Positions 741 through 64,000 of a stretch of DNA of 64,000 nt are shown here, piece after piece. Each line of letters opens with the position of its first letter. Positions within the stretch are counted from its first letter, which is position 1. The stretch lies in contig NC_081844.1 in assembly GCF_963259705.1 (NCBI RefSeq), positions 29,342,294 through 29,406,293 on the forward strand. The letters are read 5' to 3'. The notes under the pieces are model-generated. The model was not told the DNA's origin, did not search any database, and saw nothing but the letters and a program-made list of their open reading frames with translations. Source of the DNA: Myotis daubentonii (Eukaryota; Chordata; Mammalia; Chiroptera; Vespertilionidae). The position numbers and the translations under genes are program-made.

Positions 741-839
741 GGTGGCTACAGGGATGCTGAGGACAAAAATATTTCCCTCACAGCCTTCGTTCTCATCGCA
801 CTGCAGGAGGCTAAAGATATTTGCGAAGGACAGGTCAAT
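741..839 (+). CDS. C3: C3 copy A coding exon, human exon 27 equivalent
   Basis: Acceptor ctctag, donor gtaagt, phase 0 at both ends, 99 bp. It encodes GGYRDAEDKNISL through AKDICEGQVN of the thioester domain. Confidence 0.95.
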
Positions 840-61100: not shown

Positions 61101-64000
61101 CCCCTCCACCTACCTCTGTCCAACCTCAATTCCCTACAGGAAGGAGTTTTCATCTGTTTGTTCAGGGCCTTATTCCTGAATTCAAAAAAGTGTTTGGCAT
61201 ATTGTGGGGCCTAATATAAGGTGATGGAAGAAAGGAGTCAGGGAGGGAGAGGGGAAGAAGCCAAATGTCAACTGTGCCAACAGGGGGGCACTCTCCAGCT
61301 ACCCTGGTTTCCAAGAGAAGCCAGAGAACCAGATTTCTATGTGGTGTCTCCCTATGTTTAACTGTTGAAAAGAAATGAAATGATAAGTGTACACCAGATT
61401 GCTATTCTTATAGGATAAAAGGTTCAACAGAGCAATTATGTATGGCTTAGCACAAATCAAAGGCTCAGCCCAAAAGTAAGTAATACATTCTAGTGATTCT
61501 TAACATTCAGGGGGACACGCATAATAATGAGCTCCTGCTTACATGAACGATGTCCCAAACTAGAGGGGCTGTATTTATCTCCTGTTTTTAGATGTGCACA
61601 TTGAGCACAGAGAAGTTAAGTAACTTGCCCAAGGTCACACAGCTTGTAGGTGGCACAGTGGGATTTGAACCCAGGCTGACCAACTCAGGTCCACGTTCTT
61701 AGCCGCTGCTGCTGTAGACATGACAGAGACAGTGTCCAGACACAGAGCGGGAGAGAAGGGCCAAGGGGCTAAGCCTGCTCTGAAGAACCACATCCCTCCC
61801 TGTCTATCTACAGACGCCCGAAGGCATTCCCATCAAGCGGGACTTCCTCTCTTCTCAAAACAATATTGGCATCTTGCCCTTGTCTTGGAACATCCCAGAG
61901 CTGGTCAAGTACGTCAGGCCCTCCAGGAGTGGGTTTGGGGCTCCCCTATCCCAAGAGAAGGAGTGGGGGGCTGCCAGGTCTGACCAGATCACTCACCTGC
62001 CTTCCCCACAGCATGGGGCAGTGGAAGATAAAAGCCCACTATGAAGATTTGCCACAGCAGGTCTTCTCGGCTGAGTTTGAGGTGAAGGAATATGGTAAGA
62101 GAAGGAGGGAGCCAGGGTGTGGGCCCCATAATGCTGGACTCAGTGCTGGCCCCTCACAGTGCTGTCTCTCTCCCCCAACCCCCCGCCCCCAGTGCTGCCT
62201 AGTTTTGAGGTCCAAGTGGAGCCTGCAGAGAAATTCTACTACATTGATGACCCTAAGGGTCTGGAGGTCACCATCACAGCCAGGTGAGGGGCCAGGAGAG
62301 GGGTCAGGTGATGGTCAGGTGAGGGGTCAGGTGAAAGACCATATGAGTGGCCGGGTGAGGGCCTGTTGAGGGTGAGGTGAGGGGTTGGTGATTCTGGGTC
62401 CTCTCCATGCCAGTGTGACTTTACCCTACATTACTACTCAGCTTTTCAGGAGGGGAGAATCTGAGACTCTCTTCTCTACACAGGTTCTTGTATGGGAAGA
62501 ATGTGGATGGAACAGCCTTCGTCATCTTTGGGGTTCAGGATGGTGACCAGAGGATTTCACTGTCCCAGTCACTAACTCGTGTTGTGGTACCTACTAGGGG
62601 CCCCCAGAGCTTCCTCCACTCTGAACCCTTCCCTCTCACACTTTGAATCCCCTCTCCCCTTCTGAGCCCTCATTTCCTATCCCAGATCGAGGATGGCACT
62701 GGAGAGGCTGTGCTGAGCCGAGAGGTCCTGCTGAGTGCGGCTCCGCAGCCCCCGCGAGAAGCTGCCCTCGTGGGAAAGTCTTTGTATGTGTCTGTCACCG
62801 TCATTCTACACTCAGGTGAGGCCTGGGCGGAAGGTGGAGGCTCAGTTCCACCATGCAGTCCAGTATGAGAGGGGAGGCCCAACTGAGGGAGGAGGCCCAG
62901 AATGAAGGTGGGGTCAGTCTTATGATAGAGGCCCCGTCTGAGGACGGAGGTCCCATCTGAGGAGGGGTTCCAATCTGAAGGGGAAGGTTTGGTCCAGAGG
63001 CGTAGCCCAGTAGCCCACACTCACAGCCAGCCTCCTCAGGCAGCGACATGGTGGAGGCAGAGCGCAGCGGGATCCCCATCGTGACCTCCCCCTACCAGAT
63101 CCACTTCACCAAGACGCCCAGGTTCTTCAAACCTACCATGCCCTTTGACCTCATGGTGAGACCCAGGGCAAGGTTGCACCCCACTCCTGAACACTGGCCT
63201 CCTCTCTGGGTCTGCTGAACCCCTTCCACCCTTCCCTGCATCCACAGGTGTATGTGACAAACCCTGATGGCTCCCCAGCCCCCCGCATCCCTGTGGCAAT
63301 ACTGGGCTCCAACCAAGAGATTTCTGTGACCCGGGATGATGGCCTGGCTAAGCTCACCATCAACACACACAAGAGCCTGAAGCCCCTGTTGATCACTGTG
63401 AGTCTGCACCAGCAGGTCCCCACCCCAGGGAAACAGAGGACTTTATTTGTACAGCAGCTTCTAATGATTCTACAAAGGGATCTTGTCATGTGCATAGTAG
63501 GGGTCCTTTCATTTGCATAAATTGGTCTTGCCATTCACATAGAGATGTTTCATTTGCATAGAGGAGTCTTGTCTGCACATGCGGGTCCTGCCATCTGGAT
63601 AGAGGGTCCTCCTGCCATTTACACAGGGCCTCCTGTCATCTGCATGGATGTCTTATAAGGACCCTTGTCATGACATTAGCACACCTGGGTAACCTAAAAT
63701 AGTCTGCCCATGTCCAGATCTTTAATTCCATCTCATCTGCAAAATCCCTCCTGTCACACCAGGTGCCATATTGCCAGGTGCCAGGGGTTAGGACATGGAC
63801 ATCTCAGGTCGGCAGCATGCATCCTTGTCTCCCTGCTCAGGTACGCACAATGAAGGAGGGCCTCCCGGAGGGGCGACAGGCTACCAATCAGATGCAGGCC
63901 CTACCCTACAGTACGATGTATAATTCCAACAACTACCTGCACCTGTCAGTGCCCGCTACGGAGCTCAAGCCAGGGGACAAGCTCAATGTCAACTTTGTCC
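58057..64000 (+). CDS. C3: Complement C3, copy B (5' part: signal peptide, MG1-MG4)
   Basis: Twelve exons join to 1429 bp of open frame that runs off the window, 476 codons plus one base. The start ATGG at 58057 has a good context (GTACC before it). The first ~22 residues, MGPASGPSLLLLLCSLPLAL, form a signal peptide matching human C3 in layout; the mature chain would start near DPMFSIITPN. MG1 follows (NILRLENEETVVLEAH), then MG2 (SGYLFIQTDKTIYTPGST), MG3 (VLPSFEVQVEPAEKFYYI) and most of MG4 (TNPDGSPAPRIPVAI; LPYSTMYNSNNYLHLSV). Exon sizes equal the human ones from memory except exon 9 (130 against 127 bp, one added codon). All eleven introns are GT-AG. A liver-type acute-phase promoter precedes it. 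It lies head to tail behind the 3' end of another C3, 44.1 kb downstream. Confidence 0.97.
58200..58760. repeat. Degenerate G/T-rich repeat filling intron 1
   Basis: Loose units such as GGGTTTGGGTGTTT and GGTTTGTGGGTTT recur throughout intron 1 of copy B. No single period is clear. Confidence 0.5.
58863..59055 (+). CDS. C3: C3 copy B exon 2
   Basis: Acceptor cccacag, donor gtgggt, 193 bp. Encodes FSIITPNILRLENEETVVLE through SANGYLSTVTIK of MG1. Confidence 0.96.
59150..59288 (-). mobile_element. Ves SINE, truncated
   Basis: Minus-strand 3' and head part only: GGGGAATCAAACCCAAAACC and CAACTGAGCAACACCAGCC. In intron 2 of copy B. Confidence 0.72.
59765..59930 (+). CDS. C3: C3 copy B exon 3
   Basis: Acceptor tgcctag, donor gtaagg, 166 bp. 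Encodes IPASKELKSQKGNKFVSVQ through TDKTIYTPGST. Confidence 0.96.
60027..60097 (+). CDS. C3: C3 copy B exon 4
   Basis: Acceptor tcccag, donor gtacca, 71 bp. Encodes VLYRIFTVDHKLLPANQKVI through VSIE. Confidence 0.95.
60330..60430 (+). repeat. MIR fragment
   Basis: 'caggtcactcaccttcctga' and 'gcctaagttttctcatctga' are MIR wording. In intron 4 of copy B. Confidence 0.6.
60440..60830 (+). repeat. L2 LINE fragment
   Basis: 'ctacaaggccctgagtggcc', 'gcctttgcactggttgttct', 'ccttcaagactttgctcaga' and 'tgaggcctttctgagctcct' are in L2 3'-end order. Confidence 0.8.
60891..61093 (-). mobile_element. HeliBat-type Helitron, ~200 bp
   Basis: Minus strand: ends CTAG at 60891 (plus CTAGAGGCC) and starts near 61093 with CCTATATAATAAAGGC then TAATATGCAAATTGTCCCC. 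The expected first base T appears mutated. In intron 4 of copy B. Confidence 0.82.
61590..61715 (+). repeat. MIR SINE
   Basis: 'agagaagttaagtaacttgc' then 'ccaaggtcacacagcttgta' and 'gggatttgaacccaggctga' is a well-kept MIR core. Confidence 0.85.
61814..61908 (+). CDS. C3: C3 copy B exon 5
   Basis: Acceptor tctacag, donor gtacgt, 95 bp. Encodes TPEGIPIKRDFLSSQNNIG through NIPELV of MG2. Confidence 0.95.
62012..62094 (+). CDS. C3: C3 copy B exon 6
   Basis: Acceptor ccccacag, donor gtaaga, 83 bp. Encodes NMGQWKIKAHYEDLPQQVFS through FEVKEY. Confidence 0.95.
62193..62283 (+). CDS. C3: C3 copy B exon 7
   Basis: Acceptor gcccccag, donor gtgagg, 91 bp. Encodes VLPSFEVQVEPAEKFYYI through EVTITA of MG3. 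Confidence 0.95.
62484..62586 (+). CDS. C3: C3 copy B exon 8
   Basis: Acceptor cacacag, donor gtacct, 103 bp. Encodes FLYGKNVDGTAFVIFGVQDG through SLTRVV. Confidence 0.95.
62686..62815 (+). CDS. C3: C3 copy B exon 9
   Basis: Acceptor tcccag, donor gtgagg, 130 bp. Encodes IEDGTGEAVLSREVLLSA through GKSLYVSVTVILHS, with one codon more than human in the SAAPQPPREA segment (comparison from memory). Confidence 0.95.
63040..63155 (+). CDS. C3: C3 copy B exon 10
   Basis: Acceptor tcctcag, donor gtgaga, 116 bp. Encodes GSDMVEAERSGIPIVTSPYQ through TMPFDLM, the most conserved part of MG3-MG4. Confidence 0.96.
63248..63397 (+). CDS. C3: C3 copy B exon 11
   Basis: Acceptor tccacag, donor gtgagt, 150 bp. 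Encodes VYVTNPDGSPAPRIPVAILG through HKSLKPLLIT. Confidence 0.95.
63450..63660. repeat. Degenerate ~30-bp minisatellite in intron 11
   Basis: Units like GTCTTGCCATTCACATAGAG, TCCTGCCATCTGGATAGAGG and TCCTGCCATTTACACAGGG recur about every 30 bp. Confidence 0.65.
63841..64000 (+). CDS. C3: C3 copy B exon 12, cut by window edge
   Basis: Acceptor ctgctcag; open to the last base. Encodes VRTMKEGLPEGRQATNQMQA, then LPYSTMYNSNNYLHLSVPAT to LNVNFV of MG4. Confidence 0.95.

What the first reader, a model, noticed from the sequence alone, without database searches (positions are those of the whole stretch)
741..64000. Two C3 gene parts in head-to-tail order: candidate tandem C3 duplication
The 3' part of a C3 gene (exon 27 equivalent to stop and AATAAA) ends at 13975. 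A complete C3 start with promoter-like sequence, signal peptide and 12 exons begins at 58057 on the same strand. Both are uninterrupted in frame. One normal C3 gene cannot give this order, so this is a tandem duplication or a scaffold ordering error. From memory, C3 is single-copy in human; in bats a second C3 would affect the core of complement. The 44 kb between them has several complete TE insertions with matching target duplications, so that stretch looks like real continuous DNA, but this does not prove the linkage to both genes.
Basis: partly seen in the sequence, partly recalled or inferred. Interest (0 to 1): 0.88.

Follow-up and report, generated by a model that had tools for sequence, protein, structure and literature searches.

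The report
Three bat C3s, three thioester chemistries
This genome, by its nearest relatives likely a Myotis bat, carries three complete copies of the central complement gene C3 in a row; one copy keeps the usual reactive site, one has lost the cysteine that forms it and one has lost its helper histidine, so the three proteins are predicted to tag microbes in different ways, or in one case likely not at all.

Summary
The finding is real and larger than reported. The window lies in a gapless stretch with three complete head-to-tail C3 genes (A, B, C), each with 41 exons, an open frame and 1664-1665 codons, between TRIP10-GPR108 and TNFSF14. The window holds exons 27-41 of B and exons 1-12 of C (12 cut).

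The new point is the active site. A keeps thioester Cys and catalytic His. B has Cys to Ser and His to Asn, so it cannot form the thioester. C keeps the Cys but has His to Gln at the position that separates C4A from C4B. All four Myotis-like species sampled have a Cys-less C3. The His-less type is in these four and in Eptesicus. Seven His-less C3 proteins also turned up in donkey, rhinoceros, armadillo, aardvark and voles.

Prior art: Phillips et al. 2014 (PMC3891661) reported seven C3 paralogs in Myotis lucifugus, three full length, without mentioning the thioester. So the duplication is known. Ten searches of an open-licence library found no report of the chemical split in mammals.

The altered binding chemistry is inferred from sequence. 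Nothing was expressed or assayed.

The parts
741..839 (+). C3 copy B, exon 27 (exons 1-26 lie upstream of the window; thioester exon 24 at window -1461 to -1258, catalytic-site exon 26 at -422 to -263)
   Evidence: spliced model
4328..4484 (+). C3 copy B, exon 28
5998..6161 (+). C3 copy B, exon 29 (GC donor, also in A and C)
7802..7960 (+). C3 copy B, exon 30
8105..8164 (+). C3 copy B, exon 31
8251..8338 (+). C3 copy B, exon 32
8451..8502 (+). C3 copy B, exon 33
10922..11009 (+). C3 copy B, exon 34
11115..11207 (+). C3 copy B, exon 35
12027..12132 (+). C3 copy B, exon 36
12346..12435 (+). C3 copy B, exon 37
12653..12736 (+). C3 copy B, exon 38
13437..13520 (+). C3 copy B, exon 39
13611..13746 (+). 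C3 copy B, exon 40
13834..13975 (+). C3 copy B, exon 41 with TGA 13973-13975
13976..58056 (.). B-C spacer; aligns in collinear pieces with the A-B spacer
58057..58127 (+). C3 copy C, exon 1 (start codon and signal peptide)
58863..59055 (+). C3 copy C, exon 2
59765..59930 (+). C3 copy C, exon 3
60027..60097 (+). C3 copy C, exon 4
61814..61908 (+). C3 copy C, exon 5
62012..62094 (+). C3 copy C, exon 6
62193..62283 (+). C3 copy C, exon 7
62484..62586 (+). C3 copy C, exon 8
62686..62815 (+). C3 copy C, exon 9
63040..63155 (+). C3 copy C, exon 10
63248..63397 (+). C3 copy C, exon 11, an island of divergence (19/150 to A, 18/150 to B)
63841..64000 (+). C3 copy C, exon 12, cut by the window end (runs to 64050; exons 13-41 lie downstream, to 102861)

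Best explanation
The window covers the end of one and the start of the next of three complete C3 genes that stand head to tail between GPR108 and TNFSF14, and the three have diverged at the thioester active site, so that A is predicted to bind surface hydroxyl groups as ordinary C3 does, C is predicted to bind mainly amino groups as C4A does, and B would likely bind nothing covalently. Shown by sequence: three intact 41-exon genes; A GCGEQ with His; B GSGEQ with Asn in place of His; C GCGEQ with Gln in place of His. Shown: a Cys-less C3 in each of the four Myotis-like species sampled, and a His-to-Gln C3 in those four and in Eptesicus fuscus. Inferred: B is still folded, secreted and cut by the convertase, giving C3a and a soluble, non-attaching C3b. 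Inferred: C has a slower-hydrolysing thioester. Inferred: gene conversion keeps most of each copy alike within a lineage, while the thioester domain and exon 11 of C have escaped it.
For: Three 41-exon models, 0 internal stops, AG/GT sites except a GC donor at exon 29 shared by all three. The database's own protein for this contig (P0010) matches the C model at 682 of 682 and 914 of 916 aligned residues, the piece between being absent from it. Codons are TGT/CAC in A, TCT/AAC in B, TGT/CAA in C; B keeps the 26 other cysteines of human C3. RRRR, an LAR|S convertase site, both factor I cuts beside C3f and the CPN end are kept in 3 of 3 (site names recalled). dN is below dS in 3 of 3 pairs, Fisher p 1.4e-6 or less; under neutral substitution no stop arose in 0.001 (A), 0.003 (B) and 0 (C) of 1000 runs. 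Cys1010 is replaced in 4 of 146 aligned sequences, all from Myotis-like bats: Ser (B), Tyr (M. davidii), Asn (M. yumanensis, M. lucifugus). E. fuscus P0015 shares 10 derived residues with the Myotis C type, 5 of them outside the thioester domain, against 0 for P0002 and P0003. C4A lacks the catalytic His that C4B has and binds amino groups (PMC4753731, passages).
Against: No expression, protein or binding data. PMC3891661 found only one C3 paralog expressed in M. lucifugus salivary gland, the sites of the others unknown. dN/dS of 0.46-0.49 shows only moderate constraint. In the thioester domain, forcing the E. fuscus copies 2 and 3 together is not rejected (AU p 0.27), nor is forcing all Myotis-group copies together (0.11, or 0.35 without active-site columns), so shared descent of the His loss is not proved by the tree; the Gln clade also holds a M. 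lucifugus protein with His (P0027). Whether B and the Asn proteins are one gene is unsettled: IQ-TREE outside the domain groups them (92.1/86), the unsupported FastTree run does not, and P0106 is as close to A (90.57%) as to B (90.63%). No altered copy surfaced for two Pipistrellus species or Cnephaeus nilssonii (1 protein cluster each, Cys and His). That a thioester-less human C3 stays convertase-cleavable is recalled (Isaac et al. 1998; not held).
Confidence: 0.72

Rival explanations
1. B and C are decaying spare copies: their active sites were lost because nothing kept them, and they do no work of their own.
For: dN/dS of 0.46-0.49 is not low; the residue at the lost Cys differs between species (Ser, Tyr, Asn), as expected of a site no longer used; M. 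lucifugus has truncated C3 copies with early stops (PMC3891661).
Against: 0 stops and 0 splice losses in 3 of 3 copies; dN below dS; 26 of 26 other cysteines kept in B; C's altered site recurs in five species.
Confidence: 0.2
2. B is not silent but permanently C3(H2O)-like: without a thioester it would bind factor B uncut and drive or consume the alternative pathway in the fluid, somewhat like cobra venom factor.
For: Thioester hydrolysis exposes the factor B site in ordinary C3 (PMC4451739, passages); B keeps the C-terminal CPN end and cysteines.
Against: Recalled work found human C3 with Cys1010 to Ala native-like (Isaac et al. 1998; not held). No binding data here.
Confidence: 0.2
3. Dosage: three copies are kept to make more C3, and the active-site changes matter little.
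For: The copies are 91-93% identical in protein and share the sequence next to the start codon.
Against: A copy without the thioester Cys adds no tagging C3; C is most changed in the exons around the thioester (26/204 and 14/76 to A in exons 24 and 25).
Confidence: 0.07
4. Assembly error: one C3 gene mis-ordered, or haplotypes laid in a row.
For: Only the assembly was available, no reads.
Against: 0 N in 244 kb; 3 of 3 full exon sets; aligned introns and spacers 71-97% identical; three C3 clusters with one contig length each in two other vesper bats.
Confidence: 0.02

Closest known systems
Myotis lucifugus C3 paralogs (Phillips et al. 2014, PMC3891661)
   Same: Several C3 genes in a Myotis bat, three of them full length, with episodic selection mostly on two of these; Pteropus vampyrum has one copy (passages and section 13 seen).
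   Different: Seven paralogs there, four of them truncated; here three copies and no further C3 exon hit (E below 0.05) in 244 kb. The words thioester, histidine and tandem do not occur in its main text.
Human C4A / C4B isotypes
   Same: The same switch at the matching place: C4B LSPVIH, C4A PCPVLD (PMC4753731, passages) against bat A DGPVIH, bat C DSPVGQ. In C4 the His-less form prefers amino groups.
   Different: C3 not C4; Gln not Asp; the chemistry of bat C is not measured.
Complement C5
   Same: A relative of C3 that works in complement without a thioester ('no thioester domain existed', PMC7768046, passages).
   Different: B is a C3 copy, 92.55% identical to A, with GSGEQ still recognisable and an LGLAR C3a end.
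Teleost C3 isotypes (carp variants lacking the catalytic histidine: Nakao et al. 2000, title in reference lists only; sea bream isoforms with changed motif, PMC7768046)
   Same: Several C3 genes in one animal, some without the catalytic His, some with an altered thioester motif.
   Different: Fish, not mammals.
Cobra venom factor (function recalled; listed as a C3 relative)
   Same: A C3-derived protein that acts without covalent attachment.
   Different: A venom protein; nothing here points to such a use.

Membership tests
Complement C3 (orthologous gene) | Full-length C3 protein, 41 coding exons | tested here: met
Complement C3 (orthologous gene) | C3 locus neighbours: TRIP10 and GPR108 on one side, TNFSF14 on the other (order recalled) | tested here: met
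   TNFSF14 exon, PDB E 3.7e-40 and Pfam TNF; TRIP10/CIP4, PDB E 2.8e-44; GPR108 pieces recognised by eye from recall, Pfam gave no match for one short piece
Complement C3 (orthologous gene) | RRRR chain-processing site, LAR|S convertase site, factor I sites, structural cysteines, CPN C-terminus | tested here: met
   3 of 3 copies in the alignment; functions of the sites recalled
Thioester-containing C3: copies A and C | Cys1010 and Gln1013 in GCGEQ | tested here: met
Thioester-containing C3: copy B | Cys1010 and Gln1013 in GCGEQ | tested here: not met
   GSGEQ; B is a C3 gene but is not filed as a thioester protein
Histidine-type (hydroxyl-binding) C3: copy A | His at 1126 | tested here: met
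Histidine-type (hydroxyl-binding) C3: copies B and C | His at 1126 | tested here: not met
   Asn in B, Gln in C
C4A-like amine-binding isotype (works-like claim for C) | Preference for amino over hydroxyl targets | not testable with these tools
   only the residue change is shown
Working C3 paralog rather than pseudogene (B, C) | Open frame under purifying selection | tested here: met
   dN below dS in 3 of 3 pairs; no-stop probability 0.003 (B) and 0 of 1000 (C) under neutral substitution, indels not counted
Working C3 paralog rather than pseudogene (B, C) | Expression and secretion | not testable with these tools
   no RNA or protein data held; PMC3891661 gives one expressed paralog in one gland
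Cobra venom factor-like C3 (rival for B) | Forms a convertase without thioester chemistry | not testable with these tools
   needs a factor B binding assay

The most novel reading that the evidence does not exclude
Vesper bats have rebuilt, inside the C3 gene itself, the three chemical classes that other vertebrates spread over C3/C4B, C4A and C5: a hydroxyl-binding C3, an amine-binding C3 and a thioester-free C3. The His-less class has been kept since before Myotis and Eptesicus split. The thioester-free class is a standing feature of Myotis that supplies C3a and soluble C3b without tagging surfaces, which would loosen the tie between inflammation signal and surface attack. Loss of the catalytic His in C3 copies is a recurrent route in mammals: perissodactyls, armadillo, aardvark, voles and bats.
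Probability: 0.38. Interest if true: 0.92.

Novelty: new variant of a known kind. Interest (0 to 1): 0.8.

Why it matters
C3 is the point where the complement pathways meet, and its covalent tag defines how complement marks targets. A mammal whose C3 genes have split into an ordinary form, a His-less form and a thioester-free form gives a natural test of what the thioester is needed for, and of whether C3a signalling can be separated from opsonisation. It may bear on how Myotis bats live with viruses and with the white-nose fungus (a suggestion, not tested). It also means that antibody or proteomic measures of 'bat C3' may pool three different molecules.

Tried and rejected
Scaffold error and haplotype duplication were rejected. 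Dating by dS was set aside: whole-gene dS is 0.072-0.094, but single 80-codon windows reach 0.26-0.29 between C and the others, a mosaic that fits gene conversion and makes one age meaningless.

Shared descent of the His loss by tree alone was not accepted: the thioester-domain tree groups the Gln copies of Myotis and Eptesicus, together with the His-bearing M. lucifugus P0027 (97.3/68; 95.6/96 without the active-site columns), but the alternatives are not rejected. The two Asn proteins fall outside that group when the active-site columns are removed. M. davidii P0141 was found later and is in no tree. Outside the domain, grouping the Gln copies is rejected (AU p 0.0005). The shared derived residues carry the argument instead.

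A special C3a in copy A (LTLAR) was dropped as a claim: other mammals also vary at that Gly. The species could not be named; Myotis is inferred from nearest relatives (A 97.2% and C 96.4% to M. yumanensis). A search for further C3 fragments elsewhere in the genome with the anaphylatoxin family PF01821 did not complete, so copies lacking the two families searched (PF00207, PF07678) could exist. Ten answered paper searches (listings with starts of abstracts) found no report of thioester divergence among mammalian C3 genes. Passages were seen of PMC3891661 (also its section 13), PMC7768046, PMC3356312, PMC5489563, PMC5680615, PMC4057122, PMC4753731 and PMC4451739; none was read whole. No structure was predicted. 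On recheck the probability of the novel case was lowered from 0.40 to 0.38, because the two tree runs disagree on whether B and the Asn proteins are one gene.
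Full report
What was checked. The window is G000:C6:29342294-29406293, on a 111.4 Mb contig of a 2.13 Gb assembly with 121 contigs. A search of the genome with the alpha-2-macroglobulin family PF00207 gave 14 matches; three of them lie near the window on the same strand, at C6:29262333, 29337170 and 29419668. It found three complete sets of C3 exons, head to tail, and no other C3 exon hit at E below 0.05. In what follows, window coordinates below 1 or above 64000 lie outside the window.

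Gene models. A spliced alignment gave 41 exons for each copy, no internal stop, AG/GT boundaries except a GC donor at exon 29 that all three share, and TGA at the end: A 1664, B 1665 and C 1664 residues. A spans window -95740 to -62471, B -22266 to 13972, C 58057 to 102861. The database's own predicted protein for this contig (P0010) equals the C model at 682 of 682 and 914 of 916 aligned residues; the piece between is absent from P0010. Protein identities are A-B 92.55%, A-C 91.5%, B-C 91.2%, and 74-76% to human.

The locus. TNFSF14 follows C (PDB match E 3.7e-40). TRIP10 precedes A on the other strand (Cdc42-interacting protein 4, E 2.8e-44), with GPR108 pieces between, recognised from recall. 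That this is the usual C3 neighbourhood is recalled. The units are 73.5 (A to B) and 80.3 kb (B to C) from start codon to start codon. The A-B spacer aligns with the B-C spacer in collinear pieces at 79-92%; the flank after C is alike for only about 7 kb. A cut TRIP10 remnant sits in the A-B spacer and ends where sequence like that between GPR108 and A begins. It looks like a scar of the duplication and fits A being the copy in the original place (inference).

The active site. Human C3 has thioester Cys1010 and Gln1013 and catalytic His1126 (positions; roles recalled). A has GCGEQ and VIHQEM. B has GSGEQ (TGT to TCT) and VINQEM (CAC to AAC). C has GCGEQ and VGQLQM. B keeps the 26 other cysteines of human C3. 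All three keep RRRR, an LAR|S convertase site, the two factor I cuts around C3f and the final CPN (functions recalled). In human C4, LSPVIH (C4B) against PCPVLD (C4A) at the matching stretch goes with hydroxyl against amino targets (PMC4753731, passages). Bat A (DGPVIH) and C (DSPVGQ) differ in the same way.

Constraint. dN/dS is 0.46-0.49 in the three pairs, with dN below dS at Fisher p 1.4e-6 or less. If each branch had evolved neutrally, a model of substitutions alone leaves no stop in 0.1% (A), 0.3% (B) and 0 of 1000 (C) runs; indels were not counted, so this is lenient. C is most divergent in exons 11 (19/150 to A), 24 (26/204) and 25 (14/76), with further high values in short exons 4, 33 and 35 (10/71, 10/52, 12/93), against a few per cent in most others.

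Relatives. Three protein searches had 2539, 2162 and 877 hits, of which the best 120 each were listed; together they gave 142 distinct proteins, one of which (P0010) is this genome's own C. With human and the three models, 146 sequences were aligned. Cys1010 is Cys in 141, a gap in 1 partial protein, and replaced in 4: B (Ser), M. davidii P0016 (Tyr, with Gln to Arg), M. yumanensis P0007 (Asn) and M. lucifugus P0106 (Asn). His1126 is His in 130 and something else in 16. Of those 16, nine are from vesper bats (B, C, P0010 which is C again, P0007, P0012, P0015, P0106, P0121, P0141). Seven are from donkey (P0014), black rhinoceros (P0049), aardvark (P0108), nine-banded armadillo (P0134) and three voles (P0075, P0079, P0086); species are as the sources name them. 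Armadillo also has a protein with His (P0043). E. fuscus has three C3 clusters listed with one contig length: two with Cys and His, one with Cys and Gln. Only one cluster each, with Cys and His, surfaced for Pipistrellus kuhlii, P. nathusii and Cnephaeus nilssonii; clusters at 90% identity may hide others.

History. Outside the thioester domain the copies group by lineage: Myotis-group copies together (93.9/86), Eptesicus, Pipistrellus and Cnephaeus together (96.4/91), E. fuscus 2 and 3 at 99.8/100, and the Gln copies of Myotis and this genome, with M. lucifugus P0027, at 100/100. Forcing the Gln copies of both genera together there is rejected (AU p 0.0005). Inside the domain the Gln copies of both genera group together, again with P0027, which has His (97.3/68; 95.6/96 with active-site columns removed), but the alternatives are not rejected (AU p 0.27 for E. 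fuscus copies together; 0.11 and 0.35 for Myotis-group copies together). E. fuscus P0015 shares 10 residues with three Myotis-type C proteins that 21 canonical C3 proteins lack: 5 in the domain and 5 elsewhere, four of these in exon 11 (385, 391, 397, 398). P0002 and P0003 share none, P0005 two. The likeliest history is an old C copy, present before the two genera split, overwritten by conversion except in these islands (inference). B groups with M. davidii P0016 inside the domain (98.8/99). Outside it, B groups with the two Asn proteins in one analysis (92.1/86; P0016 too short to include) but not in the other. So the four Cys-less proteins may be one gene that lost its thioester early in Myotis, or two or more losses.

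How it likely works. A: ordinary C3 (inferred). C: without the His the acyl-imidazole step is missing, so the thioester should hydrolyse more slowly and prefer amines, as in C4A; this rests on C4 and on recalled work with C3 mutants. B: no thioester can form, so no covalent tagging. Recalled work on human C3 with Cys1010 to Ala found a native-like protein that convertase still cuts (Isaac et al. 1998; not held). That would make B a soluble source of C3a and C3b, much like C5 in logic. The rival is a C3(H2O)-like form that binds factor B at once (for the normal pathway).

What is known. Phillips et al. 2014 (PMC3891661; section 13 and passages seen) reported seven C3 paralogs in M. lucifugus, three full length, episodic selection mostly on two of these, single-copy C3 in 35 of 40 mammalian genera and in Pteropus vampyrum. 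The words thioester, histidine, GCGEQ and tandem do not occur in its main text. Fish have several C3 genes, some without the catalytic His (title of Nakao et al. 2000 in reference lists) and some with changed motifs (PMC7768046, passages). I found no account of thioester divergence among mammalian C3 genes in ten answered literature searches, which cover open-licence papers only.

Verdict. The duplication itself is known from Myotis. The chemical split of the copies appears to be new, is supported in several species, and is directly testable.

Noticed in passing
L035 (G000:C6:27773501-27783500, minus strand), about 1.5 Mb from the C3 array: An older C3-like gene, about 32-57% identical to human C3 in its best exon matches, with GCPEQT at the thioester site and no His in the catalytic stretch. 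I recall such mammalian genes being named A. superbus venom factor-like; the name comes from no call.
   Followed up: partly
P0014, P0049, P0075, P0079, P0086, P0108, P0134 (proteins): C3 proteins without the catalytic His in donkey, black rhino, three voles, aardvark and armadillo (Thr, Ser, Ala, Leu, Glu, Gln, Thr). The donkey and rhino ones group with other equid C3, apart from the bats; the others were not put in a tree.
   Followed up: partly
C6:29301158-29302501 (A-B spacer, upstream of the window): A cut TRIP10 remnant, minus strand, ending where sequence like the GPR108-A interval begins: probable duplication scar.
   Followed up: partly
G000:C3:23.20-23.53 Mb: Five alpha-2-macroglobulin family matches in 0.34 Mb; three thioester-domain matches there contain a stop.
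   Followed up: no
window 22679-27374: Long open stretches that look like LINE-1 ORF1 and reverse-transcriptase pieces (named by eye) on the + strand in the B-C spacer.
   Followed up: no
C3a ends of A (NSGLTLAR) and M. yumanensis P0001 (SAMVLAR): The canonical-thioester copy has an altered C3a C-terminus while B and C keep LGLAR; other mammals vary at this Gly too.
   Followed up: partly
downstream of C, after window 102861: C lacks the AATAAA found 23 bases after the coding end of A and B; its next AATAAA or ATTAAA in the 300 bases checked is at +265.
   Followed up: no
copy B protein, residues 1142 and 1331: Two N-glycosylation motifs (NIS, NFT) in B that A, C and human lack, the first in the thioester domain.
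   Followed up: no
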